Below, piece after piece: positions 5,897 through 62,001 of a DNA stretch of 64,000 nt. The position numbers and the translations under genes are program-made. Every line of letters begins with the position of its first letter. Positions within the stretch are counted from its first letter, which is position 1. The stretch is taken from the NCBI RefSeq assembly GCF_003473485.1, contig NC_053044.1, positions 35,468,091 to 35,532,090 on the forward strand, in the 5' to 3' direction. The DNA is from Medicago truncatula (Eukaryota; Streptophyta; Magnoliopsida; Fabales; Fabaceae). A model generated the notes under the pieces. That model made no database searches. It was not told the origin of the DNA and saw only the letters and a list, made by a program, of their open reading frames with translations.

Positions 5897-6089
5897 GATG
5901 ATGTTGAAGGTATGAAAAAGAGGTGGTTACTTATGACGGTGGTTAACGGCGGAGCAAAGCTACAACGATGGTGTAGCATTAGAATTAGAATAAATAAATA
6001 GTGTTATGAACTTATATGAGACTACGTTTTTTCTTGATGATATTTTAACTGAAATTGTGAAGTGGGAACTAGAAACGAATGGATAACGT

Positions 6090-14100: not shown

Positions 14101-14712
14101 TTGATGTTGATAAGCTTGCTCGTCTTGCTGATATTTATCATGTAGACTTTTCTGATGATGATCGTGGAACAATAAGGGAGCAACTTGACACTTATGTACT
14201 TCAAATGAAAAGGCATGCTTCCTTTTCTTCTTGTGAAGATGTTCAAAGTTTGGCTATGAAGATGGTTCAAACTGAGAAACATTTGGTATTTCCATTGGTC
14301 TACAAACTCATTGAGTTGGCTTTGATATTGCCGGTGTCGACAGCTTCCGTTGAAAGAGCTTTTTCAGCAATGAAGATTATTAAGACTAAATTGCGCAACA
14401 AGATCAACAATGTGTGGTTGAATGACTTGATGATATGTTACACCGAGCGGGAGATATTCAAGTCACTTGATGATGTTGATATTATTCGAACATTCACTCG
14501 AAAGAGGTCGCGGAAAGGGCATTTACCTCCTAATTTTATTTAGCACGCCATTAACAGGTTATATTTCATCTTTCTTATTTTAAGTTGTACTTTTGTTGAA
14601 AAAGTGACGAACCTCTTTTATTTCGATTTATGATTATTTATATATATTATGTCACATGAAGTTGCGATAAATTTTTTGCCCAGGCTCTATGAAATTTCTG
14701 GCTTCGCCACTG
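11114..14712 (+). mobile_element. hAT DNA transposon, complete, probably autonomous
   Basis: A 3599 bp element with terminal inverted repeats beginning CAGTGGCGA on both ends and an exact 8 bp target duplication CTTTAATT at 11106-11113 and 14713-14720, the canonical hAT size. Subterminal AGCCTGGGC boxes occur near both ends. It carries one transposase gene. The empty site is given by the first duplication copy, which lacks the element, so insertion followed the tandem duplication or the first copy lost it. The intact ends, exact target duplication and open spliced gene suggest a recent insertion. Confidence 0.9.
12034..14543 (+). CDS. hAT transposase, TTF-type zinc finger / DUF4371 type, two coding exons
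   Basis: Coding exons are inferred as 12034-12935 and 13079-14543; the 143 bp intron has GT-AG ends (TTGAG|GTTAGT ... TTTCTAG|GTTT) and removing it joins MAVMLR to FVNNKGEVVERF, the usual continuous family motif. The product is about 788 residues, normal for this group. Order of domains: a TTF zinc finger at about residues 60-170 (EYSEFKDAAYCFYCFLF), a DUF4371/RNase H-like core with Asp in VLIDESRD (about 282) and GYDGASN (about 348), a HCYAHRLQ motif (about 377), and a C-terminal hAT dimerisation domain with the catalytic-type Glu in SVERAFSAMK (about 725). A further 5' UTR intron ending at TTTCAG 12031 is plausible. The protein cuts and pastes the element. Confidence 0.85.
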
Positions 14713-19890: not shown

Positions 19891-20217
19891 ATAGAGAAAT
19901 GAGTAGCCAATTGCCAATGCCATCGGTTCACCCAACAGACAGAAAGCAAATCAATCTAGCACATGCACACATGAGCTGTGTTTTACTATTTTTGTTTTGT
20001 TATTCATTTTCTTGCGTAAAGTTATACCTAGAGAATCTTTCAACAAATCTTTCACAGTTATACACACAACGGGGTCCCCCTCCTACAAATACATACATAT
20101 CTACTCTCTTTCTTCACCTTAAAAGCTCCAGAGGCCTAACAATTTTCTCCACCATCCTTTGTCTTTTTATTAAAACTTTCTTTCAAAATTTACATATCAT
20201 AGTTTCAAACTAATCAC

Positions 20218-21522
20218 ATGGGAAGTTCAGTGCGTGTTAAAGAAGCTGTGGTAGTGACACCTTCAGAGCCCACACCAAATTGTGTCCTCTCACTTTCAGC
20301 CCTAGACTCTCAACTTTTTCTCCGCTTCACCGTTGAGTATCTTCTAGTTTATAGGCCCGGGCCAGGCCTGGACAAAGTTGCTACCACTTCTCGTTTAAAA
20401 GCTGCATTAGCAAGAGCTCTTGTTCCTTATTACCCGTTAGCAGGGAGAGTGAGGCCCAGCTCAGATAACCTGGGCCTCGAGGTGGTGTGTAAAGCTCAAG
20501 GAGCGGTTTTCATTGAAGCCGTTAGTGATCGTTACACAGTCAACGACTTCGAGAAAGCTCCAAAGACAGTTGCACAATGGAGGAGACTCTTGTCTTTTAG
20601 CGTGCCAGACGTTCTCAATGGATCACCGCCGTTGATTCTTCAGCTAACATGGCTATCAGACGGCGGCGCAGCTTTAGGAGTTGGAATCAGCCACTGTCTC
20701 ACTGATGGCATCGGTGGTAGCGAGTTTCTCAATTATGTAGCTGAAATGGCTTCAGGAAAACATAGTGGTCCTAAACCAAAACTGGTCTGGGATCGCCATG
20801 TTTTCAATGTTAAGCCAATGACTCGGGATGACTATCTTAATCAGAGTCACCCCGAGTTCAACCGTGTACCGGATCTAAGCGGAGGGTTTATGAACCGGGT
20901 CACTAATCATCTAAGACCAACTTGCATTGTGTTTGATAAACGAAAATTAACCTATCTCAAAACCATGGCTTACCGCACTTGTCAAATTTCTGACTCATCC
21001 TCATTTACATCTTTTGAGGTTCTTGCAGCACACGTGTGGAGAAGCTGGGCGAGAGCAATAGGGTTTCCACCGAACCAGACACTGAAACTATTACTCAGCG
21101 TAAACATAAGAAACCGGGTCAAACCGGGTTTACCGGACGGATACTACGGGAACGCGTTCGTTCTAGCTTGTGCACAAACCAGTGCAAAGGAATTAACGGA
21201 GAAAGGAATCGGGTACGGGTCGGGTTTAGTGAAGAAAGCGAAAGAGAGAGTGGACAGTGAGTATGTGAGGAAAGTGACAGAGATAGTGTCCGAGTCAAGG
21301 GCATGTCCTGACTCGGTGGGTGTGTTGATACTGACACAGTGGTCGAGGATGGGTCTTGAACGGGTTGAGTTTGGAATGGAGAACCCGGTATTTATGGGGC
21401 CCATTTGCAGTGATAGGTACTGTGTGTTTTTGCCGGTGAAGGGTGAAAGAGAGAGTGTCAAGGTCATGGTGGCTGTTCCCGCCGCCGCGTTTGATAACTA
21501 CCACCGGTTTCTCCGGGAATAG
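20218..21522 (+). CDS. BAHD-family acyl-CoA-dependent acyltransferase
   Basis: A 434-residue intronless protein, normal length for the family. The catalytic HxxxD motif is HCLTD at residues 159-163, followed by GIGGSEF. The N-terminal VVVTPSEPTP and YYPLAGR (about 71-77) blocks are typical. The structural DFGWG motif near the C-terminus is altered to EFGMENP (about 384). BAHD enzymes move an acyl group from acyl-CoA to an alcohol or amine in the cytosol; the sequence style is closest to alcohol or hydroxy-fatty-acid (hydroxycinnamoyl) transferases, but the substrate cannot be read from sequence. GC content is visibly higher than in flanking DNA. Start chosen: the ATG directly before GSSVRVKEA, where family homology begins. 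Confidence 0.9.
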   Translation: MGSSVRVKEAVVVTPSEPTPNCVLSLSALDSQLFLRFTVEYLLVYRPGPGLDKVATTSRLKAALARALVPYYPLAGRVRPSSDNLGLEVVCKAQGAVFIEAVSDRYTVNDFEKAPKTVAQWRRLLSFSVPDVLNGSPPLILQLTWLSDGGAALGVGISHCLTDGIGGSEFLNYVAEMASGKHSGPKPKLVWDRHVFNVKPMTRDDYLNQSHPEFNRVPDLSGGFMNRVTNHLRPTCIVFDKRKLTYLKTMAYRTCQISDSSSFTSFEVLAAHVWRSWARAIGFPPNQTLKLLLSVNIRNRVKPGLPDGYYGNAFVLACAQTSAKELTEKGIGYGSGLVKKAKERVDSEYVRKVTEIVSESRACPDSVGVLILTQWSRMGLERVEFGMENPVFMGPICSDRYCVFLPVKGERESVKVMVAVPAAAFDNYHRFLRE

Positions 21523-23179: not shown

Positions 23180-23352
23180 GAAAAATGATATTTGTACAAC
23201 CACTTTGTGACAACTTTCTTTTTCATACTCACATTATTTTCTTATTCTCCCTCTTCCTTTTTCCGTCTTCTTTGTTTTTAACTAATAAAAAGAGAGAGAA
23301 AAGAAGTTGTCATCAAAAGTTGTCTCAAATGGTTGTTCAAATATCACTACTC
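23180..23352. mobile_element. MITE, Mutator-type, copy of the 33.4-kb family
   Basis: A 173 bp element with ends AAATGATATTTGTACAACC and (inverted) ATATCACTACTC, flanked by TTTCAACAG / TTTCAACAA (8 of 9 match). It shares the interior CAACTTTCTTT, CATACTCACATTAT and AGTTGTCAT blocks with the element at 33397-33580. Confidence 0.65.
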
Positions 23353-24477: not shown

Positions 24478-25193
24478 TAATAACATTTCCATTTTTATAG
24501 TTCTATTGTATTCATTTTGAACTCAGGTCTTTACTAGTGGCTTTTCTTGAGTATTTTATGGTTATGTAAAAAAAATACTCATCAAGATGCAATCTCATAG
24601 TTCAGTTTTGTATTTTCAGATAAACAGATGAATAAAGGTAAAGATAAAGTTGTGAAATTGAACTGATTGTGAATATTGTTGCTAATATGATTTGATAAAG
24701 TTTATATCAAATCTTCTTTTGTAAAATTCAAATGAGAAGTTATCATTATATAATCTTTTAAAATCTTGTATACAAGTACCTAAACTTGTATGATTATGGT
24801 AAGATCTTTTGTACTTACTGTATCCGTGTTTGATATCTTGTATTAGTCAATAAACCAGGGTGTTAAAATAGATCACATGTAATATATACAATAATGGTAC
24901 GTATAGATAGAAACTATCACAATTGTGTTAATTTACAAACGAAGTTCAAGTCCTCTTTCAAACAATATCAACGAAAGCTTAGAGAATTAGAGAGATAGAG
25001 AAAATGGTTCTTATGCATTTATTTTGAGTGTGATATTATAATATAAATGGATCTTAAAATGAACAAACTCAACATATAAGCATGCATATAAACAATCACA
25101 CCATATTTTCATTTATAACTTTTAAGTATATATAATAATAACATTATTTAAAATTTGTATCCGATCATGATGATTTATTGGTTTTTTCTACAT

Positions 25194-26647
25194 TACCGTC
25201 TCTTGTTTAGATGATATTTACCCCTTCAAGATATCAACCAATCAAAATGTAATTAATATACAAAATGTAACATTAAATATCAAATAAATGAGACAATTTA
25301 TTTTAGGCAAAATTACACTAAATGTCATTTATCTTATTAATTTGTAACACATTAATTCTTTATCTTTTTTTTGTCCCATTTAGATCCTTTATCTATTAAA
25401 ATGTGCACAAGTTAATTTTTCTATTAAAAAAACATGAAAATTTTAATTTTATTAATAACTTTGTTTTATAAAATACTTTTTAATAAATAAATTCATAAAT
25501 CCTATAAACATTTCATCCTCATATTCATCATCTTCATCTTCTTCCTTAAATCAAAAAAATTGTCCATCCAAATAAACCTTCAAATTCCTTAAATATTTTC
25601 ACTTCCATCTTCTTCTAAACACAAAATTCAAAATCCCCAAATTTCATAAACCCTAATTTTACCAAACCCATAAATTTCGATTTTGGATTTAAAGAAAAAA
25701 TCTCACAATTTGGATAGTGAACCTCTCATGTTTGAGGGCTCAAGCATAGTTTTAGTTAAGATCATCATCATAGCCTAGATCTTGTAATTTTCTCATCGAA
25801 TACAATCATCACTTTTCCCATAGCTTTCCTATCTCTGATGGTAGTGAAGGAGAGGTTCCTGCAACAATAAGAAATTGTTTATACCATCGTATAGCACTAG
25901 TCCAAAATTTAAAAAGGTTAAAAATCTAAAAAGCTAAACAACTAGCTCATATGCACAATCCTCGTCAAGTTCACATCAAACACCATTATAATCAAATTTC
26001 ATAGAAAACAAGAAACCCGATACTTTGAATTCTCGATTTCTTTCTTTATATCCAAAATTCAGATTTATGGGTTTGGAAAATTTAGGGTTTATAAAATTTG
26101 AGTATTTTGAATTTTGTGTTTAAAAGAAGATGGAAGTGGAAATATTTAAGGAATTTGAAGGTTTATTTGGATGGACAATTTTTTTGATTTAAGGAAGAAG
26201 ATGAAGATGGTGATTATGAGGATGAAATGTTCATAGGGTTTATGAATCTTTTTATTTTTATTAAAAAATATTTTATAAAACAAAGTTATTAATAAAATTA
26301 ATATTTTCATGTTTTTTTAATAGAAAAATGAAGAAAAGGATTAACTTGTGCACATTTTAATAGATAAAGGACCTAAATGGAACAAAAAAAAGATAAAGGA
26401 CTAATGTGTTATATGATGGGTTGAATTTGATGTGAAATTTTAATTGTTGCAAGACATATAGTGTAAATTAATTAAGATTGAATACCTAAATATATAATTA
26501 AATTAAATGTTACCTTAGGATTAAAATTGATTTTTTTATAGAAAAAGTTGAATCATTTATTTGACATTTAATGTTAAATTTGTATATTACATTTTGATTG
26601 GTTGATATTTTGAAAGGGTAAATACCCCCTAAATAAGAGAGGGTAAT
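25194..26647. mobile_element. Nested foldback element in unit 1
   Basis: Outer inverted arms (TTTACCCCTTCAAGATATC, continuing AACCAATCAAAATGTAATTA, against their complement near 26600) enclose a second inverted pair from about 25320 to 26425 whose arms are around 380 bp and nearly perfect (TTGTCCATCCAAATAAACC against GGTTTATTTGGATGGACAA). The centre, about 25740-26000, has no recognised gene. Ends and target duplication are not clear. Confidence 0.65.
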
Positions 26648-26781
26648 CTAGGCCTCTCTTAAGTTTCGTAATAATATCATTCTTTACAAAAATATAAATA
26701 TATTTCATTTTAAATCACATGTCATTAGTATGATAAAATATTAATTTACATAATCATATTGACTTTAGCTAAACAAGTTTT

Positions 26782-26920
26782 TTTTTTTGTCTTATATGAA
26801 GTGGTAAATCACTGAAAATAAACTCACACACAACTGTGAGATCTCGAGTTCGAACCTGGTTCAAGATGTTCGGCCTTACAATTTCGGCATTTACCAGTTG
26901 AGGTAGGACTTCTAGACTAT
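26782..26920 (-). mobile_element. tRNA-derived SINE, family B, with 9-bp flanking repeat
   Basis: Minus strand: CCTCAACTGGTAAATGCCGA (A-box region), AGGTTCGAACTCGAGA (B-box), then GTGTGTGAGTTTATT and a terminal A tail. The flanks are ACAAGTTTT at 26773-26781 and 26921-26929. A decayed second copy lies at 48950-49068. Confidence 0.65.
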
Positions 26921-27572
26921 ACAAGTTTTATTTTAAAATGGCAAAATATATTAATCACAAATTAATGTGTCATAAAAAAACAAAAAAAAACTGAGCATGG
27001 TTTGTAAAATCATAAGTAAATTTAATAAATTGAAGGCAACACATCAAAATCAACAATTAATTTAAGACCTACTAATTATTGTAGTAGATTGTTATAACTT
27101 TGTAATTTGTAACAGCGTTCTAGTTTTTGATATTTTTAAAAGTTAAAAAAAGCATTGAAGGTTGTTAAAATATTCAAATATATGTGAAATATAAATTGAA
27201 GTGTGAGAAAAATCACAAGTGTAACAACATTATTACTTAAATATAAAACTATAGCCTTTAAAGTAAAATAAAAACTATTTTCCATCTCAACAATCAAAGC
27301 TATTCTGATAGGCGGTAGAGTTAATAAAAATGTGTGATATGTTTTAATTGAAGGCGACGACACAAATATCTTTAAAACTAAGAGTGAATAAGCGATCTAT
27401 ATAATATTTTTTGATGTCTTGTTTCATTTTATTACAATCAAAGTATAGCACAAACCCATAACTACAATGTTCTTGAAATTATCGGGTGTTAACACAATAA
27501 TTAAATGACAACTCGTGAAATATTCTGGCACAACTTTTATGTAATCTCTTTGGTCTAACATTAAATTCATAT

Positions 27573-27885
27573 TCATGTGGACACAAAATCTATTGGGTTC
27601 AAGATTGTAATGCATTTACATTGGCGCGTTATACATCTCACCACAAGTCCAGATGGACACAACCATGATTTGTTGATACAATGATAATCATTATAACAAC
27701 TGTCATCTGTTGTAATGAAAAGAGAGAATAAAATAATGTAACTATAATGGGATGAAATATTATTTACAAAGTTAAGAAGGAAATTTAAAAAGGATAAAAA
27801 GTGGTTTACCGTCATTGTTTGTTGCAACAAGAAATAACTTAAAAAAGATAATCATAGCATAAACAAACTTGACAATTTCAGTCAT
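27573..27885 (-). CDS. NCR peptide gene 1 (nodule-specific cysteine-rich), two exons
   Basis: Minus-strand exons are 27885-27810 and 27706-27573, split by a 103 bp intron with GT-AG ends. Exon 1 encodes a signal peptide (MTEIVKFVYAMIIFFKLFLV plus ATNND), the usual NCR leader. Exon 2 encodes a mature peptide with six cysteines spaced C-x5-C-x6-C-x7-C-x4-C-x1-C, the classic NCR pattern. The total is 69 residues. NCR peptides are made in infected nodule cells, routed through the secretory path to symbiosomes, and steer bacteroid differentiation. The predicted mature form is about neutral to slightly acidic, so a strongly cationic antimicrobial role is less likely. The intron splits the gene after the leader, as in most of the family. 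The close paralogue is at 33617-33929. Confidence 0.88.
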
Positions 27886-27934
27886 ATTCCTCCACCCTCC
27901 CTTTGCATATAACAAATTGTTTTACCACTTTACA

Positions 27935-27941
27935 ATTTATA
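27935..27941 (-). promoter_or_regulatory. TATA box of NCR gene 1
   Basis: Minus strand reads CTCTATAAATTG, about 50 bases upstream of the ATG. The same element sits at the same distance in copy 2, within roughly 530 bp of conserved upstream sequence. Confidence 0.55.
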
Positions 27942-28423
27942 GAGTTAATCCTCTTGTTACATCAATTAAATAACTTTTAGCGCTTTCGAAGTTGTAGAAA
28001 AACATTTATAAAATCATAATTGTCATTAAATATCTCTAGAGTACGTCAGTGTGTTGTGTTTGTCTGTTTCGCACACTTGGTAAAGAAGTCACTTAAAAAA
28101 AATCTATTCATTAGAATTCATTCCTTTATAAACTAAATTTCCATTATTATATAACCTATCACGATAAAAAAGGGACAATCATAATTATTTTTTTTGTAAA
28201 AATTAAAATTCAAAGCCATTACATTGCATATATGGGATCCCAACTAAGATAAAACGCCAAGACTACTACTATATTTGAAACGATGTTTTCATGTGAAAGT
28301 TTAAATTGCAACATTTAATTGTACATGTGGGTTGCTCGTAGCGATCTAATGTAGAGTGTCTTGGTAAATGAATAACAATTAGAGTAATTAGAATTAGGAA
28401 GTTTAACTTATTATATAATTACA

Positions 28424-29637
28424 GGAGGGTGGCACCCTTTGGTATCGTGTCCTTTATGCCCGTTACGGAGAGGAGAGAGGGCGGCTTTGCTGCTCTCGTA
28501 GAGGTGGTGGATCAGTGTGGTGGCAGACTATTTTAGATGTTAGGGATGGTGTGGGTCAGATTGATTCAGGTTGGATGTTGGACAATATTACTCGTCGTGT
28601 AGGGAATGGTTTGTCCACTTTGTTTTGGGTCGACCCTTGGCTGGAGGAGAAACCTTTGTGTATTACTTTTTCGCGTCTGTATGAGTTAGCGGAGAACAAG
28701 TAAGTCACGGTGGCTGAGTTGTTTGCGAGAGGGTGGGGGGTTAACGGGGAAGCGTGGAAGTGGCGTAGGAGACTTTTCGCGTGGGAGGAGGAGTTGTTGG
28801 GGGATTGTATTAGTCGTCTATCTAATTTCTCTTTTCAGGATGACCGCGCAGATAGTTGGATTTGGACATTACATGATTCTAATTGTTACATTGTTAGTTC
28901 TGCTTATTATTATTTAACAGACAGGGAGGTTGATGAGCATCATCAGCATATTAATAATTACAGGTTTTTATGGCTGAAAGCGGTGCCTCTTAAAGTAGTA
29001 ATTTTTGCTTGGCGCCTGTTCCTCAACCGGATTCCTACTAGAGACAAACTTTTTCAACGAAAGGTTTTGCTTGCATCTAATCAGGGGTGTATTGCTAATT
29101 GTGGTTTTAATGAAGACAGAGATCATTTACTTCTCACGTGCGGTTTTTTCGGCGGGGTGTGGCATATCATTGCGGCTTGGCTTGGTTACTCAACAGCTTT
29201 CCATTGTCACTTTTTTGAACATTTTCATCATTTTAGTGGTCTGCGTGGCTTCTCTAAGAAATCGATTGAGTCCATGCAGATTATTTGGCTTTCGGTAACT
29301 TGGACAATTTGGAAAGAACGGAATAACAGAATTTTTAAAGGAAAGGAGGATAACTTGCTAACGCTAGGTGAAAGGGCAAAGCTTCAATCTTTTTGGTGGT
29401 TGAAATCGAAATACACTAATTTTGATTTTGACTATCAAGAATGGCGGCGGAGTCCTCTAACTTGCTTAAACTTTATTTTCTAGCTAATTGTTTCTTTGTT
29501 TCACTGTTTCTGCGCCTTATTGGCTTTGTACAGGATTGTTTTGTGTACCATTTGTGCCTAGGCGTTTTGGCACGCCTTGTGCTTTAGCGTCTAGGTTTGT
29601 TTAATATATATTTCATTTTGGCTTTTTCAAAAAAAAA
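28424..29637 (+). mobile_element. 5'-truncated LINE with zinc-binding RT C-terminus
   Basis: One reading frame from about 28425 to 29483 encodes the C-terminal part of a plant LINE ORF2: the WVDPWLEEKPL region, the zf-RVT segment (FLWLKAVPLKVVIFAWRL, then LLLTCGFFGGVW), WTIWKERNNRIFKGK and the ending SFWWLKSK, RRSPLTCLNFIF. There is one stop at 28701-28703. No RNase H domain follows. A 3' UTR and a 9-10 A tail follow. Unit 2 has no insert here but holds about 95 bp (34428-34522) that is missing on this side, so the insertion apparently deleted target DNA and made no obvious target duplication. It lies about 540 bp upstream of NCR gene 1. Confidence 0.8.
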
Positions 29638-29811
29638 ATGATTGGATCAAGAAGAAGATATTTAGTCTTATAAACATGAAAATCATTTTTTTTACAGCAT
29701 AAACATAAAAATCTTTAAAAATTGTATAAACCTTAAATAAAGAGTTGATTAAGTAATACTTTAAAAATTGTATAAACATTAAATAAAGAGTTGATTAAGT
29801 GATACTTTTTT

Positions 29812-30140
29812 TTAAAAAGCCAAAATAAAATTATATAACAATGCAGTCCCTAGAGCACAACGTGTGCCATAGAGACTACAACAGGAACCAAGAGTTACAA
29901 CAAAACAACCAACCCAACAGAGCTACATCAGCCTATACCCAAACATACAAGAGGGCATGACCACCACTGCTGAGTACCAAACACAAAAGTAGTTCTTTTA
30001 GCTTTCAACCAAGCTAAGGACAACATCTTGACCTTGTCTAACAAACGGGGAATGAGAGTTATTGCATTATTAAACAGACGATTATTTCGCTCTATCCACA
30101 CAATCCAAACAAAGAGAAGGCAAATAAGTTGCATAAAAAG
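29812..30140 (-). mobile_element. 5'-truncated LINE end, minus strand
   Basis: The minus-strand frame reads LLFVWIVWIERNNRLFNNA, then LAWLKAKRTTFVFGTQQWWS and CPLVCLGIG-stop, followed by a 3' UTR with GTTATATAATTTTATTTTGG and an A tail. It is flanked by AAGTGATAC / AAGTAATAC and is absent from unit 2. Confidence 0.7.
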
Positions 30141-30997
30141 TAATACCGCAAAGGAATTGAAGATTTTGAGGCTATTAAGAAAATTGTATAAACCTTAAAT
30201 AAAGAGTTGATTAGGTAATACTACTATGGAATTAAGGATATTGAGGCTATTAAGCAAATCAAAGAAAAGTTTATCTTGTTCTAGCAGCCAATTATTTATG
30301 GCATTTATCACATTCTAAGGTCGAATTTTAGATTTTCTACAATAATCATATGAAAATTTAAAAATGGTTGGATTCATGATTAAATAGTGATAACATATAC
30401 CAAAAAATAGGATTTGGATCATCTCATTTCTCTCAATCTCTCCGCGTCTCTCCTTCACTAAGTTCTATCTATCTCTCTGTCTCTTTAAATATTAGAGAGA
30501 AGATCAAGAGAAAGAGAAAATAAAAAATAAGATCAAGAGAGAAGAATATCAATAGAAAGATAGACACAAATTCGAGAAGTATAAAAAATGAGAGAATGAG
30601 GGGAAGGAGAAGATCCAAATACCAAAAAATTATTTCCTTACATCATACAATAAACTTTCCTAATTCAGTCAAATCAATTTCTAATTAAGGAGATTTCCCA
30701 TTCCATAACTTCACCACTAACAAGATAAATCACAAAAAAAAAAAACTATCACAATGGAGCTACTTTCCAATATAAAGCTCAAGATCTCTCTCTCTCTCTC
30801 AAAGAATACCAATGAAAAGGTATAGAACTTTGATAACATTCCCATTATTATAGTTGTACGGTATTCATTTTGAATTTAGGTCTTTACTAGTGCCTTTTCT
30901 TTAGTACTTTATGGTTATAGAAAGAAAAAAATGCTCATTGAGATGTAATCTCATATTTCAGTTTTGTGTTTTTATACGAGCAGGTGAATAAAGGTGA

Positions 30998-32867
30998 GGC
31001 TTAAATGCATTTTTTTATCCCTTATATTTTAAAATGTTGCGATTTTGGCCCCCTTAAAAAAAATAGATATTTGGACCCCCAACTTTAGCCCCTTTTACAA
31101 ATAGATGATTTTGACCAAGTCAAAGTCTATATAGCATGTTACTTAAGTGATTTGGCAGACAACTGTGTAATTATGATTTAAAAAATAAAAAGAAAAGCAA
31201 CGTATGTATTTCAATAATTTAAAAAATAAAAAAAATAAAAGAATACAAGAAAAATGCACGTGAGCTTCTAATTTTTTTCTCCTTCTTCATCTTCATAATC
31301 CTTCAACATACAACCCAAAAAAACAAAAAAAAACCCAACAAAGGGTTGTAAAAACAAAAAACACTCTCCTCTCCTCTCTTATGATTCCGAAAATACTCTT
31401 TCTCCTCTCCATGCTTCAAAAACTAGCACAAAAAACAACCCCAACAACACCAATTATTCAATTGATTTCTGCAATATTTTCAATTAATTCAATTGAATAA
31501 TATGAAAATTTTAAATTCAGAATAAAAATTTTAAAAATTCAACTTGAACAAGCGATATCGAACAAGATCGGAATAAGAGAGAGGAGAGCAAAATCGGAAA
31601 AAATCTCCATTCAATATCATTGACGGCGGGATGGCGAGAACACCGCCGAAGAACTCAATCATTTTATGATACTGCAACTGTTTCGCACGACAAATACAAC
31701 AAGGGCGATGGCCAAGACCGAAAGCCTGATTGAAAGTGAATCTGGACAAGAAATGGGATGCCATGGAGCTTATCACTGAACGAGAAAGTGAATCTCGACG
31801 AAATTAAAACTGAAGCTTCTCCGATTAAAATGCAGCTTCTTTCCTTTGAAGAAGAAGCAGCAAAAGAAAAAAAAATGAAGGTTGTTATGCTAGAGGGAGA
31901 GCAGAGAGGGAGTTTTTTTTCTTTCCTTTGAAAAGAAGCTCATGTGTTTCTCTTTTTTTTTTTTTTATATTTTTAATTCAACAAATACACGTGTGTCATA
32001 TTAAATTAATTTAAAATAAAAATTGTATAGTTGACATGCCAAATCACTTAAGTGACATGCCACATAGGCTTTGACTTGGTCAAAATCATCCATTCACAAA
32101 AGAATAATGCTTAAGTGTGCGAAATTTAATTTCGCACAATCCACGCGAATGTGCTGGAGCATTAATGACCATCCGATATCTCTTTCTCAATCACTGTTTT
32201 AGCCATAATGACAAACTTAATCCTTGAAATAAGGAACTATGAAATCATCTTTTCCACCGCCCCACTATTCACTACCAAATTTTTAATCTCCCCTAATTGG
32301 AAACAATGTTGCAGAGTCAGACAAAAACAAACATAGTAGAGGTGTTGATAGTCTCTGCACTGCGGTGGTTGTAGTGGTAGTAAAGTAACCATGGTGACTG
32401 ATTGCCGCAATTTACAAATGGAAAGTTGTTGCAATGGCCATAAGACACTTTGGTTTAAGCAATGACTGCTATTAACGGCGGCGACGGTGATCGACGCCAT
32501 CGCCGACGACGGTGATCGACGCCATCGCCGACGGTGACCGACATTGTCGCCGAGCAAACAACCAGCTTGCAGAAAACAGCCAAGGCGGTTACCGAAAAAA
32601 TGAGTTTTACCATAAGGCAATCCCATAATGGGAAATATTATATTTTGATCAGTTTTATTTACTTTTTTTTAAACAAAATGTAGCCTTAATTAATGAGTTT
32701 GTACGCAAGCTTCTTGTTCGTGTGTTATGTGCGAAAAAATACTTCGCACCATTTAGCACTACTGTTCGCAAAAGGGGCTAAAGCTAGGAGGTTCAAATAT
32801 CCATTTTTTTATGGGAGTCAAAATCGTAATATTTTAAAATATAAGAGGTAAAAAGTCAATTTAAGCT
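30998..32867. mobile_element. Mutator-type foldback element with a nested insertion
   Basis: Inverted arms start GCTTAAAT(G/T)..TTTTTA at both ends and continue for 150-200 bp (TTGACCAAGTCAAAG against CTTTGACTTGGTCAA). Flanks are TAAAGGTGA (30989-30997) and TAAAGGTAA (32868-32876), a 9 bp duplication with one change. The uninterrupted target is present in unit 1 at about 24630. The middle (about 31260-31930) contains an unrecognised 81-residue minus-strand frame. Confidence 0.75.
32103..32765. mobile_element. Second Mutator-type element nested in the foldback arm
   Basis: Ends carry inverted GTGCGAA..TTTCGCAC blocks, and it is flanked by TCACAAAAG (32094-32102) and TCGCAAAAG (32766-32774). 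The host arm continues across it. The interior has a GC-rich repeat, about 2.7 copies of a 28 bp unit (GACGGTGATCGACGCCATCG) at 32482-32555, in a minus-strand frame of 129 residues that matches nothing I know. Confidence 0.65.
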
Positions 32868-33396
32868 TAAAGGTAAAGATAAAATTACGTGAAGTTTAAT
32901 TGACCATGGATATTGTTGCTAATATAATTTGATAAAGTTTATATCATATCTTCTTTTGTATACTGTAAATGAGAAGTTATCATTATGTAATCTTTTTGAA
33001 ACTTGTATTTTGATACAAGTACTTAAACTTGTATGTTTATGGTAAGATCTTTTGTACTTAATGTATTCGTGTTTGATATATTGTATTATGTACTAGTCAA
33101 TAAACCGGGGTGTCACAATAGATCACATGTAAATACATACATAAAATAATAGTATATATATAGAAACTATCTCAGTTGTGCTAATTTACAAAACAAAGCT
33201 CAAGTCCTCTTTCAAACAATAGCAATGCAAGCTTAGAGAATTAGAGAGATGAAGAAAATGGTTCTTACACATTTATTTTGAGTGTGATATTATAATATAA
33301 ATGGATTTAAAATGAACAATGTTCTTGAAATTATTGGGTGTCAACACAATAACTAAATGACAACTCTTGAAATATTCTAACATGACTTTTATGTAA

Positions 33397-33580
33397 GAGA
33401 AATGATATTTGCACAACCAATTTCTAACAACTTTTTGACAACTTTCTCTCTCATACTCGCATTATATTCTTATTCTCTCTCTACCTTTTTTTCTTTCTAT
33501 TGATTTTGACCAATTAAAATAGAGAAAAACAAAGTTGTCATGGAAGTTGTTTAGAAAAATATGTACAAATATCACTACTC
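33397..33580. mobile_element. MITE with exact 9-bp target duplication and known empty site
   Basis: A 184 bp element flanked by TTTATGTAA at 33388-33396 and 33581-33589. Unit 1 has the single uninterrupted TTTTATGTAATCTCTTTGG at about 27537-27555, so the insertion followed the duplication. It lies just beyond the 3' end of NCR gene 2. Confidence 0.85.
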
Positions 33581-33616
33581 TTTATGTAATCTCTTTGGTC
33601 TAACAATCAATCATAT

Positions 33617-33929
33617 TCACGTGGAGAAAAAATTTATTGGGTTCAAGATTTTAATGCATTTACAATGGTGCGTTATACATCTCACCACAAGACCAAATGG
33701 GCACAACCATGATTTGTAGATACAATGATAATCATAATTACAACTGTCATCTGTTGTAATGAAAAAAGATAATAAGATAATGTAACTATAGTGGGATGAA
33801 ATATTATTTACAAAGTAAAGAAGTGAAATTGAAAAGGATAAAAAGTGGCTTACCGTCATTATTTGTTGCAACAAGAAATAGCTTAAGAAAGATAACCATA
33901 GCAAAAATAAACTTGGCAATTTCAGTCAT
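33617..33929 (-). CDS. NCR peptide gene 2 (nodule-specific cysteine-rich), two exons
   Basis: Minus-strand exons are 33929-33854 and 33750-33617, with a 103 bp GT-AG intron, the same structure and lengths as copy 1. The 69-residue product has a leader (MTEIAKFIFAMVIFLKLFLV plus ATNND) and a mature peptide with all six cysteines in the same spacing. Against copy 1 I count 15 base changes that alter residues and 5 silent ones; no cysteine is touched. Exchanges include S to F, T to K, D to N and V to F. The promoter-proximal region including a TATAAAT at 33979-33985 is conserved. Both genes look intact, so both could be expressed; expression itself cannot be seen here. Confidence 0.88.
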
Positions 33930-33978
33930 ATTTCTCCGCCCTCCTTTTACTTATAACAAATTATTTTACCACTTTACA

Positions 33979-33985
33979 ATTTATA
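33979..33985 (-). promoter_or_regulatory. TATA box of NCR gene 2
   Basis: Minus strand CTATAAATTG about 50 bases upstream of the ATG, conserved with copy 1. Confidence 0.55.
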
Positions 33986-35374
33986 GAGTTAATCCTCTTG
34001 TTACATCGATTAAATAGCTTCTAGCGCTTTTAAAGTTGTAGAAAAACATTTATAAAATTATAATTGTCATTAAATGTCCCTTAGGACGTCAGTGTGTTGT
34101 ATTTAAAAATCCATTCATTAGAATTCATTCCTTTATAAACTAAATTTTCATTATTATATAACCTATCATGATAAGAAAGGGACAATCATAAAATATATAT
34201 TTTTTGTTGTAAAAATTAAAAATCAAAGACATTACATTGTAGATATGGCAGCCCAACTAAGATAGAACACCAAGACTACTATATTTAACACAATGTTTTC
34301 ATGTGAAAGTTTACATTGCAACATTTAAGAGTACATGTGAGTTGCCAGTAGCCATCCAATGTAGAGTATCTTAGTAACTGAATAACAATTAGAGTAATTA
34401 GAATTAGGAAGTTTAACTTATTATAAAATTGTTCTATGTATTTATTTTGATTCTTACTGTATTGAAATACTCTGAATGTCTTGAGGTTCTTGAAGTTTAA
34501 TAAAATTCATAAATTCAAATTTTAAAATGATTGGATCAAGAAGAAGATATTTAGTCTTATAAACATAAAAATCATTTTTTTTACGGCATAAACATAAAAA
34601 TCTTTAAACCTTAAATAAAGAGTTGATTAAGTAATACTACTAAAGTTAGTAAAAAAAAGAGTAATACTGCTAAGGAATTGAAGATTTTGAGGCTATTAAG
34701 AAAATTGTATAAACCTTAAATAAAGAGTTGATTAGGTAATACTACTAAGGAATTAAGGATTTTGAGACTATTAAGAAAATCAAAGAAAAATTTATCTTGT
34801 TCTAGCAGCCAATTACTTATGGCATCCATCACATTTTAATCATGATTTTCTACTATAATCATATGAAAATTTAAAAATGGATGTTTCATGATTAAATAGT
34901 GATAACGTATACCAAAAAATAGGATTTGGTTCCTCTCATTCTTTTCAATCTCTCCGTCTCTCTCCTTCACTAAGTTCTATCCATCTCTCTATCTCTCTAA
35001 ATATTAGAGAGAAGATTAAGAGAGAGAGAAAATAAAAAATAAGGTCAAGAGAGAAGAAGAAGATCAAGAGAAAGATAGATACAAATTGGAGAAGGATGGA
35101 GAATGAGAGAATGAAGGGAAAGAGAGGATTCAAATACCAAAAAATTATTTCCTTGCATAATACGGAAAACTTTCCTTATTCAATCAAAATGATGTCTAAG
35201 GAGATTTCCTACTCCATAACTTCACCACTAACAAGATAGATCACATCTATATACAAATATATATAATAAAAAAAAAACAGTACATTTCAACTATCACAAT
35301 GGGGCTAATTTACAGCATAAAGCTCAAGATATCTCTCTCAAAGAATACCAATGAAAGCATATAGAATTCAAGAA

Positions 35375-42091: not shown

Positions 42092-43741
42092 ATGCAAACT
42101 TATATTCATTCTTGGAAATGCCTTGCAAACATAGATCCACCGATTGATTCATCCAAAACCCTTGATAAATCTGACCCATTTGTTCAAATCCCTAGACCTG
42201 AAACTCAAATTAACAACCATGAGTCAGTGACTCTCAACCGTAGCCTACATGTGAACCAAAACAAAACTACCCCATCAAACAAGCCGACCCAAACATTTGT
42301 CCAACCCAAAACTTTTGCCCAGGCTCTGTCAAACAATCATCTTTGTGATATTCCCTCATCACAACTACCTCAGCCTGTCATCAAAGGAGACAATCTATCC
42401 ATTTCAATCCCAGAAGAAGAATATGAAGCAGGTATGGCATCTTGCAAACTCAACCTTCATGCCAGGGTCATATGGCCCAAAGGGGCAACCCCTCTTACTG
42501 TTTTTGCTTTGAGAAATTGTCTGTTGTCTGTTTGGAAGAATTTAGGTAAGTGGGGGGTTTCCTCAATAGGAAGAGGATACTATGAATTTGTTTTTTCCAG
42601 CTTGGAGGATGTAAAGAGAGTTAGATCAGTTCCTTCTTGAAATCTTAATCCAGGTGTCTTAAAGCTTTTTGCTTGGTCTCAAGATTTTAAACCTAATTTA
42701 CAAAACAATTCCACTGCACAAGTATGGGTTAGGTTACACGGCCTTCCACAGGAATATTGGAGACCAAGGATTTTCTTTGCTATTGCAAATAGTGTTGGAA
42801 CACCTATTTGCACAGACTCAGCCTCAACCAAGCCAATGATAGACAGAACATTTGGCCAATATGCTAGAGTTTTGGTTGATATGGATATTACAAAGGATCT
42901 AAGATACAATGTTTTGGTAGAAAGAAAGGGTTATGCTTTCTTTGTGGAATTAGAATACGAAAATTTACCTGATTATTGTGTTCACTGCAAGAAAATAGGA
43001 CATGATGTGGAAATTTGCAGATTTGCTATTAAAACTGTACAGGCCAGGACAGCTTCAAAGCTAATTAACAATGAACAAAAAAAGGTTCATGTTATAGCTA
43101 GAGATGGGAGAAAAAATCAGGGCAAGAATGTTGAGAATCCCATAATTGTTGAAGAAGCAGCTTTGAAAGAGGTAGAGGTAATCAACAAAAACAAGGACAA
43201 ACAAAAGGATCCTGCTGCCGAAGAGGGAACTAGTGGAGTAAAAAACATGGGTATACTGCTGCAAAAGAATCAATTTCAAATTCTACAAGTTAACGAAGAT
43301 CCAATCAGTCCAAGAGCCGTAATGAGAAGTCAAGATCAGAATTTAGAAAAAGAGATCAATGATGAATTGGAGGAAAGAGTAGTTAATGAATCAGTGCAAG
43401 ACTCAAGCTCTCAAGGCTCTGAGTTTGTTGATGCTACATAATTTCAAATTCTCAACAATGATGTCAATGATCAAGAAGATGTTGAAACTAAACTTCCAAC
43501 TCCTGAAAGAGTTCAAAATGACATGGAATTTCTCAAACAGTCATGGGCCAATATAGTGGATGATACAGCCGCTGAAGACAGACTCTCAGAGGAACTAGAG
43601 CAGCGACAAGCTGCAGTTGAAGAGGAGCAACAACATATTTTTGCTGAGGACTTTCAGCTAGTTACAACAAGAAGTCAGAAAAAAAACAGCCAAAAAGAAG
43701 CAGAATCTGAAGACTGTTCAGCATCAAGCCAGAGCCAATAA
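42092..43741 (+). pseudogene. LINE ORF1 (DUF4283 / zinc-knuckle), two in-frame stops
   Basis: One continuous frame of 550 codons is broken only by TGA at 42638-42640 and TAA at 43439-43441; no frameshift. The first stop lies where related proteins have Trp (SWNLNPG context), so one G to A change explains it. A DUF4283 RNA-binding-like domain spans about residues 105-205 (LHARVIWPKGATPLTVFALR); the zinc knuckle CVHCKKIGHDVEIC (C-x2-C-x4-H-x4-C) is at about 295-310. The tail is acidic and Lys/Glu-rich. The protein normally binds the element's RNA; here it would be cut to about 182 residues, before the knuckle. Confidence 0.85.
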
Positions 43742-43760
43742 GGTTTTTTATCAAAAACCT
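43741..43760 (+). other. Stem-loop between LINE ORF1 and ORF2
   Basis: AGGTTTTT, loop TATC, AAAAACCT: a perfect 8 bp stem that starts at the last base of the ORF1 stop codon and ends 5 bases before the ORF2 ATG. It may affect re-initiation; this is inference. Confidence 0.4.
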
Positions 43761-43765
43761 TTCAA

Positions 43766-46700
43766 ATGAAGTGTTTGTTCTGGAATGTTAGGGGTATAGC
43801 TAATCACCCCTCAAGATTAGCCTTAAAAAGACTAATTATTTTGCATAAGCCTGACATTGTAATTATTTCTGAACCCTGGATGTGCTTCAATACTTTCCCT
43901 AATAGATGGCATTCTAACCTTAACCTAAAACTTTTTGCCATGAATTCTAGACCTAATCATCTCCCTAATCTCTGGTGCTTTTGTAAATCCAACCTTGACC
44001 CTATCCTTCTTGCTACTGATGATCAACAGGTTACCTTCTCTTTAACTATAGATTCCAAAGTAGTGGCCTTTACAGCTATCTATGCATCAACCAGTTACAT
44101 CAAAAGAAGACAATTATGGTCCTCTTTGAATTCCCTTCAATCACAACATTCTATTCCCTGGTGTTTTATTGGGGACTTTAATGTTGTTATTGGATCCCAT
44201 GAATATAGAGGTTCTTATCCTCCTGCCAGACTTCCAATGGAGGAGTTTCTTGGATGGTCAGAAGCTAATAATCTCTATCACATTCCCACTAGAGGTTCAG
44301 AGTTTACTTGGTCAAATGGGAGGAGAGGAAATAGAAGCACTGAAAAAAAATTGGACAGATCTATCTGCAATCAACAATGGTTAGATTTGTGTTGTTCCCT
44401 TTCTTGTTCAACTTTAACAAAACAAAAATCAGATCACCATCCCCTTTTACTTGAGTTCCAAGTGACCCCAGTCAGTTTTGCTTCCCAATTCAAATTCCAA
44501 CAAATGTGGGCCCTTCACCCCGATTGTAAAGACATTATCACCTGTAGTTGGAATTCAAACATTATAGGCTCCCCTATGTACATTCTTAATTCCAAGCTGA
44601 AGAACCTCAAAACCATTTTGAAAGTGTGGAATAAGGAAGTCTTTGGAGATGTGCACGCTGCTGTGCAAACTGCAGAAGATAATTTGAATCAAATTCAGAA
44701 TGATATCAACTTGCAAGGTTCCTTTGACACCCTTCTAGATGCTGAGAAATTAGCCCAAACCAACCTCGAACTTTGCTTGAAACAACAAGAAACCTTTTGG
44801 AAAGAGAAAGCTAAAATCAATTGGCACTTAGAGGGTGACAGAAACACAAAATATTTCCACAAAATAGCCAAAATCAAATCAACCAGTAAACTGATCACCA
44901 CTCTGCAAGATGGAGAGAATACACTTACAGATACTCAACAAATTGCAAATCATATTGTTAATTATTATAAGTCTTTATTTTGTACTAACTTTGTTTTGCA
45001 GGACCAGTTACTTGTAGACGAAGTAATCCCTAAACTAATCGCAGATGACATAAATGCAGTTCTCACCACTCTCCCTTCATCATTGGAGATCAAGGCAGCA
45101 GTTTTTGGTCTAAACAAGGATAGCGCTCCTGGTCCTGATGGGTTCGGTGCTTTCTTCTTTCAAAATTATTGGCAGATTGTCAACAAGGAGGTTGAAAATG
45201 CAGTATTGGAGTTCTTCACAAAAGGATGGATTCTTCCAGGTTTCAATTCTAATATCATTGCTCTGCTTCCAAAAAATCCAAATGCCACTTCAGTAGATCA
45301 TTATAGACCAATAGCTATGGCAAATTTTAAATTCAAAATCATTTCTAAGATTTTAGCAGATAGATTAGCTCAGCTTATGCCAAAGATCATCTCTAAAGAG
45401 CAAAAAGGTTTTATTCAAAATAGAGACATTAGAGACTGCCTGTGCATTGCCTCAGAAGCTGCTAATTTATTACATAACAAATCTTATGGGGGTAACATTA
45501 TGCTAAAGATAGACATATCCAAAGCTTTTGACACTTTAGAATGGCCCTTCTTAATTCATGTTCTGAGAGCTTTTGGTTTTAATGAAACCTTCTGCAACTG
45601 GATTGAAGTTATTTTAAAGTCTGCATATCTTTCAATTTCTGTCAATGGAAAAGCACAAGGTTATTTCAACTGTACTAGAGGGGTGAGACAGGGAGACCCT
45701 TTATCCCCTCTTTTATTCTGCCTGGCTGAAGATGTTTTGAGTAGAGCGATTTCTAAATTAGTTGTTGATGGAAAGCTTGAACTCATTAAAGGAACTAGAC
45801 ATGTTAATGTTCCTTCCCACACTTTTTATGCTGATGATTTGATGATATTTTGTAAAGCCAAAAATGCAGGTATCTCAAATCTTAGAGATTTATTTATCAA
45901 ATATGCATTGGAATCTGGTCAAGTGGTGAATTGTGCAAAATCAACAATGTATCCTGGCTCCATTGCAGTTTCTAGGATTCAACAACTCTCCACAATGTTA
46001 AACTTCAATATAGGATCTTTACCTTTCAATTATTTGGGGGTGCCTATTTTCAGAGGGAAACCAAAAGTTTCTCATCTTCAACCAGTAGCTGACAAAATCA
46101 AAGCAAAACTATCTGCTTGGAAGGCCTCCCTTCTCTCTATGGCTGGTAGAATTCAACTCGTTAGATCAGTAATTCAAAGTATGTTGATGTATAGTATTTC
46201 AATATACTCTTGGCCCATGTCTCTGATCAAGGATGTTGAAAAATGGTCAAGGAATTTCATTTGGAGTGGAGATGTGGATAAGAGAAAGCTTGTTACAGTT
46301 GCCTGGAAGAAAGTCTGCTTGCCTTTCTCTCAGGGTGGTTTAAGTCTGAGGTCCATTAAAACTCTCAACACATCAACAAACCTTAATCTTCTCTGGAAGA
46401 TGTTGCATTCAACAGATGATTGGGCAATCTTGTTGAGATCTAGAGTTTTGAGGTGCAGAAAACCAATTCAATACCACATTTACTCCTCATTATGGAATAG
46501 CATCAAAGAGGAATTCAGTGATATCAACAATAACTCTATTTGGCTCCTTGGTAATGGTCAAAATATCAGTTTCTGGAATGATAGCTGGTGTGGAGCACCC
46601 CTTTCTCAAGCCTTAAGCATTCCTGATGCAATATCAGTTCATTTATCTTCAACTGTTAGTGATTACATTGTTAATGGTGAATGGAGTATTCCTGAAACTC

Positions 46701-47899
46701 TTTGTCAAATGTTTCCTCTTCTCAGTCAACTTGTGCAACAAGCTACTATCCCACTGGAAGATAAAGATGATCAATTAATTTGGAAGCATTCAGCTAATGG
46801 TTTCTTGGACCTCAAGCAAGCTTATGTTTTCAAGAGAAATAATAATGAAGATCTGAAGTGGCCAAAGTTAATTTGGAATAAGGATATTCCTCCCTCAAAG
46901 TCTCTTATGGTCTGGAGGCTGATGCAAGGGAAGATTCCTACTGATGATAGATTGATGGATAGAGGCTGCCAGCTGGTTTCCATGTGTAACCTCTGTTGTA
47001 AGAATTCTGACTCTTTTATGCATCTCTTCTTTTTCTGCCCTTTTGCTTTAAAATTGTGGTCCTGGTTATCTGCATCTTTAAGTATGAATATGCAATTTAG
47101 AGACATGGATGACATTTGGAACTTTTGTGAAGGAGCTTGGTCCCCACAATGTAAAATTGTTATCATAGCTGCTCTGATCAATTTACTTAACACAATTTGG
47201 TTTGTGAGGAATGAAGCTAGATTCAACAACAAGTTAATTCACTGGAAGTCAGCCATTTCAATCATTATTGCTAACACATCTCTCTCTGGTAACTTCACTA
47301 GCAAGGCATCTAACAATTCTATCAGAGACTTCATAATTTTAAAAACTTTCAATGTCACAATTCGTCATCCAAACGCTCCTACAATCACAGAAGTAATCTG
47401 GAAGCCTCCTTTGTTTCATTGGGTTAAGTGCAATACAGATGGAGCATCATTGGGAAATCCTGGTTTAGCCTCTTGTGGTGGTGTTTTCAGAGATTTTGAA
47501 GGTACCTGTATGGGTTGTTTTGCTGAAAGTTTAGGTATTCTCACTTCTTATCAGGCTGAATTATGTGGGGCCATGAGAGCTATAGAAGTGGCGTATCAGA
47601 AACATTGGAACTTTCTTTGGTTAGAGACAGATTCTATGTTGGTGGTTCAAGCTTTTAAGAATTCCACTCTAGTGCCTTGGCAAGTCAGAAACAGATGGAA
47701 CAATGTTCAACTTAAATTAACTAATATGAATTGTATAGTTACTCACATTTTCAGGGAAGGAAACCAAGTAGCTGATTCCCTCGCAAACTTTGGGCTGTCT
47801 CTGGATCACTTTGATTTTTTGGATCATATACCTTTGTTTGCTAGGGAATCCTACGTTAGGAACAAAATTGGTTTACCTGAATTTAGGTTTTCTTCCTGA
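43766..47899 (+). CDS. LINE ORF2: endonuclease, reverse transcriptase, RNase H
   Basis: An open frame of 1377 residues with all expected parts in order. Residues 1-235: EEP (APE-type) endonuclease with WNVRG, ISEPW, GDFN and SDHHP. About 440-770: reverse transcriptase with APGPDGF, HYRPIAMANFKFKIISKILA and the catalytic FYADD (about 685-690). About 1015-1105: zf-RVT (IPPSKSLMVWRLMQGKIPT, CNLCC). About 1218-1350: RNase H with the D-E-D-D set in NTDGAS, YQAELCGA, ETDS and VADSLAN. It nicks DNA and copies element RNA into the site (target-primed reverse transcription). It starts 24 bases after the ORF1 stop, in the same frame. No damage is visible, so the protein could still act if translated, perhaps with ORF1 supplied from another copy. 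Confidence 0.93.
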   Translation: MKCLFWNVRGIANHPSRLALKRLIILHKPDIVIISEPWMCFNTFPNRWHSNLNLKLFAMNSRPNHLPNLWCFCKSNLDPILLATDDQQVTFSLTIDSKVVAFTAIYASTSYIKRRQLWSSLNSLQSQHSIPWCFIGDFNVVIGSHEYRGSYPPARLPMEEFLGWSEANNLYHIPTRGSEFTWSNGRRGNRSTEKKLDRSICNQQWLDLCCSLSCSTLTKQKSDHHPLLLEFQVTPVSFASQFKFQQMWALHPDCKDIITCSWNSNIIGSPMYILNSKLKNLKTILKVWNKEVFGDVHAAVQTAEDNLNQIQNDINLQGSFDTLLDAEKLAQTNLELCLKQQETFWKEKAKINWHLEGDRNTKYFHKIAKIKSTSKLITTLQDGENTLTDTQQIANHIVNYYKSLFCTNFVLQDQLLVDEVIPKLIADDINAVLTTLPSSLEIKAAVFGLNKDSAPGPDGFGAFFFQNYWQIVNKEVENAVLEFFTKGWILPGFNSNIIALLPKNPNATSVDHYRPIAMANFKFKIISKILADRLAQLMPKIISKEQKGFIQNRDIRDCLCIASEAANLLHNKSYGGNIMLKIDISKAFDTLEWPFLIHVLRAFGFNETFCNWIEVILKSAYLSISVNGKAQGYFNCTRGVRQGDPLSPLLFCLAEDVLSRAISKLVVDGKLELIKGTRHVNVPSHTFYADDLMIFCKAKNAGISNLRDLFIKYALESGQVVNCAKSTMYPGSIAVSRIQQLSTMLNFNIGSLPFNYLGVPIFRGKPKVSHLQPVADKIKAKLSAWKASLLSMAGRIQLVRSVIQSMLMYSISIYSWPMSLIKDVEKWSRNFIWSGDVDKRKLVTVAWKKVCLPFSQGGLSLRSIKTLNTSTNLNLLWKMLHSTDDWAILLRSRVLRCRKPIQYHIYSSLWNSIKEEFSDINNNSIWLLGNGQNISFWNDSWCGAPLSQALSIPDAISVHLSSTVSDYIVNGEWSIPETLCQMFPLLSQLVQQATIPLEDKDDQLIWKHSANGFLDLKQAYVFKRNNNEDLKWPKLIWNKDIPPSKSLMVWRLMQGKIPTDDRLMDRGCQLVSMCNLCCKNSDSFMHLFFFCPFALKLWSWLSASLSMNMQFRDMDDIWNFCEGAWSPQCKIVIIAALINLLNTIWFVRNEARFNNKLIHWKSAISIIIANTSLSGNFTSKASNNSIRDFIILKTFNVTIRHPNAPTITEVIWKPPLFHWVKCNTDGASLGNPGLASCGGVFRDFEGTCMGCFAESLGILTSYQAELCGAMRAIEVAYQKHWNFLWLETDSMLVVQAFKNSTLVPWQVRNRWNNVQLKLTNMNCIVTHIFREGNQVADSLANFGLSLDHFDFLDHIPLFARESYVRNKIGLPEFRFSS

Positions 47900-54290: not shown

Positions 54291-54489
54291 ACAAATATGG
54301 AGAAACCCAAAATAAAACCATGTCCCTTTATGCTTTCTTCTCCCGTTTCAACGGTTATTCTGTTATTTTCTCCACAAGATTCTCTTTTATTATTTCTTTT
54401 ATTTATTTATTGCGTAAGAAAAGTATGGGTAAGGTACAATAATTTTTGTCCCAAATTCAATATATGTGTTAAGTCCTCTTTTATTATAA
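54291..54489. repeat. Spacer of the palindrome
   Basis: About 200 bp. It carries a plus-strand copy of the repeated module also seen inverted at 52680-52860 and 52980-53150 and direct at 55885-56080 and 57742-57920. Confidence 0.6.
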
Positions 54490-61952: not shown

Positions 61953-62001
61953 TTCACTTGTGTGCACTTTTCTAGATAGGTTGCTCTATCCTTTGTGCCC
62001 A

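What the first reader, a model, noticed from the sequence alone, without database searches (positions are those of the whole stretch)
27573..33929. Two spliced NCR peptide genes hidden in a segmental duplication
Minus-strand sequence at 27885-27573 and 33929-33617 encodes, after removal of a 103 bp GT-AG intron in each, 69-residue secreted peptides with six cysteines spaced C-x5-C-x6-C-x7-C-x4-C-x-C. That leader plus cysteine pattern is the NCR family of IRLC legumes (established knowledge). Because exon 1 is only 76 bases, a simple open-frame scan misses the start. These are the window's most likely symbiosis genes and may be unannotated.
Basis: partly seen in the sequence, partly recalled or inferred. 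Interest (0 to 1): 0.85.

Follow-up and report, generated by a model that had tools for sequence, protein, structure and literature searches.

The report
Two tandem NCR nodule peptide genes
The window, which looks like legume DNA of the Medicago kind, carries two intact-looking two-exon genes of the well-known family of small secreted peptides that legumes use to control bacteria in root nodules; they are ordinary members, although one copy appears to have lost part of its promoter.

Summary
All five published NCR promoter motifs lie upstream of copy A in the order reported for NCR169 (2-1-4-5-3); copy B has four of five. The duplication is head-to-tail tandem, later interrupted by insertions.

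Added here: B lacks 36 bases that hold the 5' half of motif 1, and lacks the circadian evening element that A has at -150 in motif 4. This predicts different expression of A and B, which I could not test.

Limits: no RNA-seq, SignalP or plant annotation; whether the genes are unannotated is untested. Exons and intron have diverged equally (9-10%), so no strong purifying selection is visible. Verdict: real, ordinary members of a family of about 700 in Medicago truncatula.

The parts
27810..27885 (-). NCR gene A, exon 1: start codon and signal-peptide-like leader (25 codons + 1 base)
   Evidence: hydrophobic peak at residues 10-20
27707..27809 (-). NCR gene A, 103-base GT-AG intron, phase 1
27573..27706 (-). 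NCR gene A, exon 2: six-cysteine mature part and stop
33854..33929 (-). NCR gene B, exon 1
33751..33853 (-). NCR gene B, 103-base GT-AG intron, phase 1
33617..33750 (-). NCR gene B, exon 2: six-cysteine mature part and stop
27903..27952 (-). promoter A, NCR motif 3 (45 of 50 positions)
   Evidence: motif from PMC3613412 Table 2
27956..27996 (-). promoter A, NCR motif 5 (37 of 41)
27999..28039 (-). promoter A, NCR motif 4 (36 of 41); holds an exact evening element AGATATTT at -150 (28028-28035)
28041..28081 (-). promoter A, NCR motif 1 (36 of 41)
28137..28177 (-). promoter A, NCR motif 2 (35 of 41)
33947..33996 (-). promoter B, NCR motif 3 (45 of 50)
34000..34040 (-). promoter B, NCR motif 5 (36 of 41)
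34043..34083 (-). promoter B, NCR motif 4 (37 of 41); no evening element (GGACATTT at the aligned place)
34084..34104 (-). promoter B, remnant of the 3' half of motif 1 (18 of 21); the 5' half is missing through a 36-base gap against A
34144..34184 (-). promoter B, NCR motif 2 (35 of 41)
24480..30827 (.). tandem unit A (approximate limits), interrupted by stretches without a counterpart in B
30833..35366 (.). tandem unit B (approximate limits), abuts unit A head to tail
33397..33580 (.). 184-base inverted-repeat element inserted 36 bases beyond the stop codon of B, flanked by a 9-base direct repeat (TTACATAAA); MULE-type MITE by structure (type is recalled knowledge)
30998..32868 (.). about 1.87 kb element with inverted terminal repeats of about 98 bases (83% alike) inside unit B, absent from the matching place in unit A

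Best explanation
[quoted passage not shown] Shown: gene structure, reading frames, family profile match, NCR promoter motifs. Inferred: in infected nodule cells AHL-type and other factors switch the promoters on through the motif array, the transcript is spliced, the leader directs the peptide into the secretory pathway, the nodule signal peptidase complex cuts it, and the six-cysteine peptide of about 45-49 residues reaches the symbiosome, where it helps to steer bacteroid differentiation. The mature A peptide is anionic (pI about 5.4) and B near neutral (pI about 7), so direct membrane killing of the kind shown by cationic NCRs is unlikely; modulation of bacteroids or of cationic NCRs is more likely. 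B, with motif 1 cut and no evening element, is predicted to be expressed more weakly or at another time than A.
For: Exact gene models. PF07127 61.3 and 52.4 bits, cut-off 30.4, profile positions 1-54 of 54. Strict six-cysteine pattern in 0 of 60 resamplings. Motifs 2-1-4-5-3 before A and 2-4-5-3 before B, nine sites with scores 24.5-35.9, each above the highest score for its motif in 40 resamplings of the window; no other site in the window exceeds that null maximum. Nallu et al. state that the motifs were absent from the upstream 1,000 bp of 33,131 other annotated Medicago genes (PMC3613412, passage); the NCR169 promoter has the same order (PMC9946822, passage). TATA-like CTATAAAT at -57 in both. 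Hydrophobic leader, peak 2.64 and 2.70 at residues 10-20. No indel between A and B in the 313 bases of exons and intron.
Against: No expression data. As B is a duplicate of A, the two profile matches and the two motif arrays are not independent of each other. Divergence is alike in exon 1, intron and exon 2 (7 of 76, 10 of 103, 13 of 134 bases); dN 0.092, dS 0.152 (NG86), 0.096 and 0.135 (YN00): no clear purifying selection, so a copy could be drifting. B's motif 1 is cut and an element sits 36 bases beyond its stop codon. No signal-peptide predictor was run. Sequence searches of solved structures found no significant relative.
Confidence: 0.95

Rival explanations
1. A is a working NCR gene, but B is a decaying copy: promoter truncated in motif 1, element in the 3' region, coding frame intact only because the duplication is fairly young.
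For: 36-base loss in motif 1 and missing evening element; element with 9-base direct repeat after the stop; coding divergence equals intron divergence.
Against: B keeps start, splice sites, frame, all six cysteines and four of five motifs with high scores; 52.4 bits to PF07127.
Confidence: 0.3
2. The expressed product is not the spliced peptide but the unspliced ORF that starts at an ATG inside exon 1 in another frame and reads through the intron into the cysteine domain.
For: That frame is open in both copies.
Against: The Pfam match spans the spliced exon 1 product from profile position 1; two exons with the leader in exon 1 is the usual layout of NCR genes (PMC9515463, passages); GT-AG sites are kept in both.
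Confidence: 0.03
3. Chance ORFs with a cysteine pattern, no gene.
For: Short exons in A+T-rich DNA (composition).
Against: Profile scores, cysteine pattern and promoter motifs are far above cut-off or resampled sequence.
Confidence: 0.01

Closest known systems
[quoted passage not shown]
   Same: Leader, six cysteines ending C-x4-C-x-C, two exons with the leader in exon 1, promoter motifs
   Different: I saw nothing outside the described range of the family; both are non-cationic by calculation
NCR169 of Medicago truncatula
   Same: Same order of the five promoter motifs in A; the motif-4-like element is at -157 to -121 there, motif 4 at -154 to -114 in A
   Different: NCR169 has four cysteines (PMC8110993, start of abstract in listing), these have six; no claim of orthology
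Plant defensins
   Same: Secreted cysteine-rich peptides; the moderate-confidence model of the mature part has a helix followed by two strands
   Different: Defensins usually have eight cysteines and are not nodule-specific (PMC7230169, passage)

Membership tests
NCR / Nodulin_late | Profile match to PF07127 above the curated cut-off | tested here: met
   61.3 and 52.4 bits, cut-off 30.4
[quoted passage not shown]
   Six, C-x5-C-x6-C-x7-C-x4-C-x-C; mature part 45-49 residues if cut after residue 20-24 (assumed); definition from PMC7230169
NCR / Nodulin_late | Two exons, first coding the leader, second the mature peptide | tested here: met
   76 + 134 bases with a 103-base GT-AG intron; layout per PMC9515463
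NCR / Nodulin_late | N-terminal cleavable signal peptide | tested here: inconclusive
   Hydrophobic core at residues 10-20 and profile match from position 1; no signal-peptide predictor available
NCR / Nodulin_late | Conserved NCR promoter motifs clustered within about 400 bp upstream | tested here: met
   A: 5 of 5 in order 2-1-4-5-3; B: 4 of 5, motif 1 truncated
NCR / Nodulin_late | Nodule-specific expression | not testable with these tools
   No RNA data held
NCR / Nodulin_late | Host in the IRLC clade of legumes | tested here: inconclusive
   One MIR2629 match at 3016-3084; 5 papers hold that name with Medicago, 3 of the 5 titles naming Medicago (listing); promoter motifs defined in M. truncatula. 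Host not named; genome search unanswered
Plant defensin | Eight cysteines, four disulphides | tested here: not met
   Six cysteines
Cysteine-stabilised alpha-beta fold | Fold match to solved members | tested here: inconclusive

The most novel reading that the evidence does not exclude
The pair is a natural promoter experiment: after the tandem duplication A kept motif 1 and has an evening element in motif 4 and is clock-gated and fully induced, while B lost the 5' half of motif 1 and has no evening element and has moved to a different time or level of expression, so that regulatory divergence, not coding change, separates the two peptides' roles.
Probability: 0.25. Interest if true: 0.4.

Novelty: new member of a known kind. 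Interest (0 to 1): 0.25.

Why it matters
Small two-exon genes are often missed by general gene finders (PMC3924332, passages), and in the R108 genome the authors' general pipeline found 20 NCR genes against 616 by a dedicated search (PMC8862580, passages), so correct models are useful for annotation. The pair's promoter differences give a ready test of what motif 1 and the evening element contribute to NCR expression in planta. Beyond that, it is an ordinary pair in a family of several hundred.

Tried and rejected
Further NCR genes in the window: a strict and a loose six-cysteine pattern gave only A and B, and two four-cysteine patterns gave 0. No other place carries a promoter motif above its null maximum; the best stray is motif 5 at 2280-2320 (+), 33 of 41, score 13.6 against a null maximum of 17.7. 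A tblastn of both peptides against the window was run at a very lax cut-off; its printout was cut, and apart from A and B the rows that I saw were weak (best 0.016). The six-frame fragments of the window were not scanned with Pfam as a whole, so a strongly diverged or broken NCR elsewhere is not excluded.

A published copy: six peptide fragments searched as text in the paper library gave 0 papers. Supplementary tables, where I would expect NCR lists, could not be opened, so this says little about whether the peptides are published.

Selection: dN/dS from one pair of 69 codons is about 0.6 (NG86) or 0.7 (YN00) and has little power.

Own genome: five attempts at genome search did not complete, so copy number and source genome are unknown. 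PMC4168050 was looked at in passages and not used.

Full report
Observation. The minus-strand stretches 27885-27573 (A) and 33929-33617 (B) were rebuilt by script: exon 1 of 76 bases, a 103-base intron beginning GTAAAC (A) or GTAAGC (B) and ending TACAACAG, and exon 2 of 134 bases, giving 69-residue peptides in both copies, with six cysteines spaced C-x5-C-x6-C-x7-C-x4-C-x-C. In six frames of the whole window the strict six-cysteine pattern occurs 2 times, at A and B; it occurs in 0 of 60 first-order Markov resamplings. A loose form occurs 2 times in the window, at the same places, and in 2 of 60 resamplings.

Family. Both peptides match Pfam PF07127 (Nodulin_late) over the full model, 61.3 bits for A and 52.4 for B, cut-off 30.4. 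For NCR genes the published layout is mostly two exons, the signal peptide in the first and the mature peptide in the second, with four or six cysteines (PMC9515463, passages seen; PMC7230169, passages seen). Both fit. The leader has its hydrophobic peak at residues 10-20 (Kyte-Doolittle 2.64 and 2.70 over 11 residues). I had no signal-peptide predictor.

Promoters. Nallu et al. 2013 give five 41-50 base motifs of NCR promoters (Table 2 of PMC3613412, seen among passages) and state that they were absent from the upstream 1,000 bp of 33,131 other annotated Medicago genes (passage). I turned the consensus strings into simple weight matrices and scanned both strands of the window against 40 first-order Markov resamplings. 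A has motif 2 at 28137-28177 (35 of 41 positions), 1 at 28041-28081 (36 of 41), 4 at 27999-28039 (36 of 41), 5 at 27956-27996 (37 of 41) and 3 at 27903-27952 (45 of 50). B has 2 at 34144-34184 (35 of 41), 4 at 34043-34083 (37 of 41), 5 at 34000-34040 (36 of 41) and 3 at 33947-33996 (45 of 50). All nine score above the highest value for their motif in the resamplings, and no other place in the window does. The order 2-1-4-5-3 is that reported for NCR169 (PMC9946822, passage seen), and motif 4 of A (-114 to -154) lies where the AHL-bound 37-base element of NCR169 lies (-121 to -157). This evidence does not rest on the coding sequence. Since B is a duplicate of A, the two arrays count as one piece of evidence, not two.

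Difference between the copies. The alignment of the two upstream regions shows 36 bases missing from B between 34104 and 34105 (the same break). What remains is the 3' half of motif 1 (18 of 21 positions); the 5' half has no good match nearby (best 13 of 20, elsewhere in the 160 bases searched). As motif 1 was found in 146 of the 209 promoters that Nallu et al. examined, a loss in B is more likely than a gain in A. A also has an exact evening element, AGATATTT, at -150 within motif 4, and B has GGACATTT there. Achom et al. report that this element lies in the same conserved stretch and is enriched in rhythmic NCR promoters, with a variant AGACATTT (PMC8982390, passages seen); they also report 86 NCR promoters with the element that did not oscillate, so its presence in A does not prove rhythm. 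The element alone is not rare: 12 in the window on both strands, 0.094 per 500 bases; it is the position in motif 4 that makes it worth noting. Which state of that site is ancestral is not known, and the effect on expression is inferred.

Duplication. Self-comparison (blastn rows printed in full) and the junction sequences show a head-to-tail tandem duplication: unit A from about 24480 to 30827 abuts unit B from about 30833 to 35366. Unit B contains an element of about 1.87 kb with inverted terminal repeats at about 30998-32868, missing from the matching place in A, and a 184-base inverted-repeat element at 33397-33580 flanked by TTACATAAA on both sides, 36 bases beyond the stop codon of B. 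Unit A contains a stretch without a counterpart in B that holds a reverse-transcriptase zinc-binding fragment (28704-29480) and a fold-back at 25188-26651. Local duplication with transposons nearby is the suggested mode of NCR expansion in M. truncatula (PMC7230169 and PMC8862580, passages).

Selection. A and B differ at 48 of 495 aligned upstream bases (40 more in gaps), 7 of 76 in exon 1, 10 of 103 in the intron and 13 of 134 in exon 2; there is no indel inside the gene models. dN is 0.092 and dS 0.152 (NG86), or 0.096 and 0.135 (YN00). So exons are no better conserved than the intron. This neither shows constraint nor excludes it, and it is the main reason for doubting that both copies matter.

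Function. With cleavage assumed after residues 20-24 the mature A peptide has pI about 5.4 and B 6.7-7.0. Antimicrobial action is described for certain cationic NCRs, and a role of anionic or neutral ones as antagonists of cationic ones is a published hypothesis (PMC7230169, passages). I therefore expect modulation in the symbiosome, not killing. This is inference. A model of the mature part from two sequences has pLDDT 77.8 and pTM 0.48, with helix 7-12 and strands 21-26 and 29-34; fold searches gave only weak rows, scorpion toxins at the top and unrelated proteins below. I rest nothing on it.

Host. One MIR2629 match (61.6 bits, gathering 60) and promoter motifs defined in M. truncatula suggest Medicago; that MIR2629 is a Medicago family is recalled, and supported only by a listing in which 3 of 5 titles name Medicago. 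Five requests to search the window's own genome did not complete.

Verdict. These are ordinary, intact-looking NCR genes. Their one unusual feature is the paired promoter difference, which makes a direct test possible.

Noticed in passing
window 3016-3084 (-): Rfam MIR2629 precursor match, 61.6 bits against gathering 60.
   Followed up: partly
window 5378-5926 (-): RING-H2 finger protein ORF (zf-RING_2, 53.8 bits) with an N-terminal hydrophobic stretch, ATL-like by recall.
   Followed up: no
window 11890-14540 (+): hAT-type transposase in two overlapping frames (DUF4371 split across both, Dimer_Tnp_hAT in the second), so probably broken.
   Followed up: no
window 20203-21519 (+): Near full-length acyltransferase of the Transferase family (PF02458, 231.1 bits; BAHD type by recall) in one open frame.
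   Followed up: no
window 42641-47896 (+): LINE-type element: an ORF with DUF4283 (50.2 bits) and a sub-threshold zinc knuckle, followed by a 1385-residue open frame with endonuclease, reverse transcriptase and RNase H-like domains.
   Followed up: no
window 61398-61985 (-): LOB-domain protein ORF (PF03195, 130.7 bits).
   Followed up: no
window 23180-23352 (+): Relative of the inverted-repeat element found behind gene B (80% alike), flanked by TTTCAACAG and TTTCAACAA, 8 of 9 bases alike.
   Followed up: partly
window 27573-27900 and 33617-33940 (-): The exon 2 frame is open backwards through the intron to an ATG inside exon 1 in both copies, so an unspliced ORF with a hydrophobic N-terminus exists.
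   Followed up: partly
window 53420-55357: Large inverted repeat of about 870 bases, 83% alike (53420-54286 against 55357-54486).
   Followed up: no
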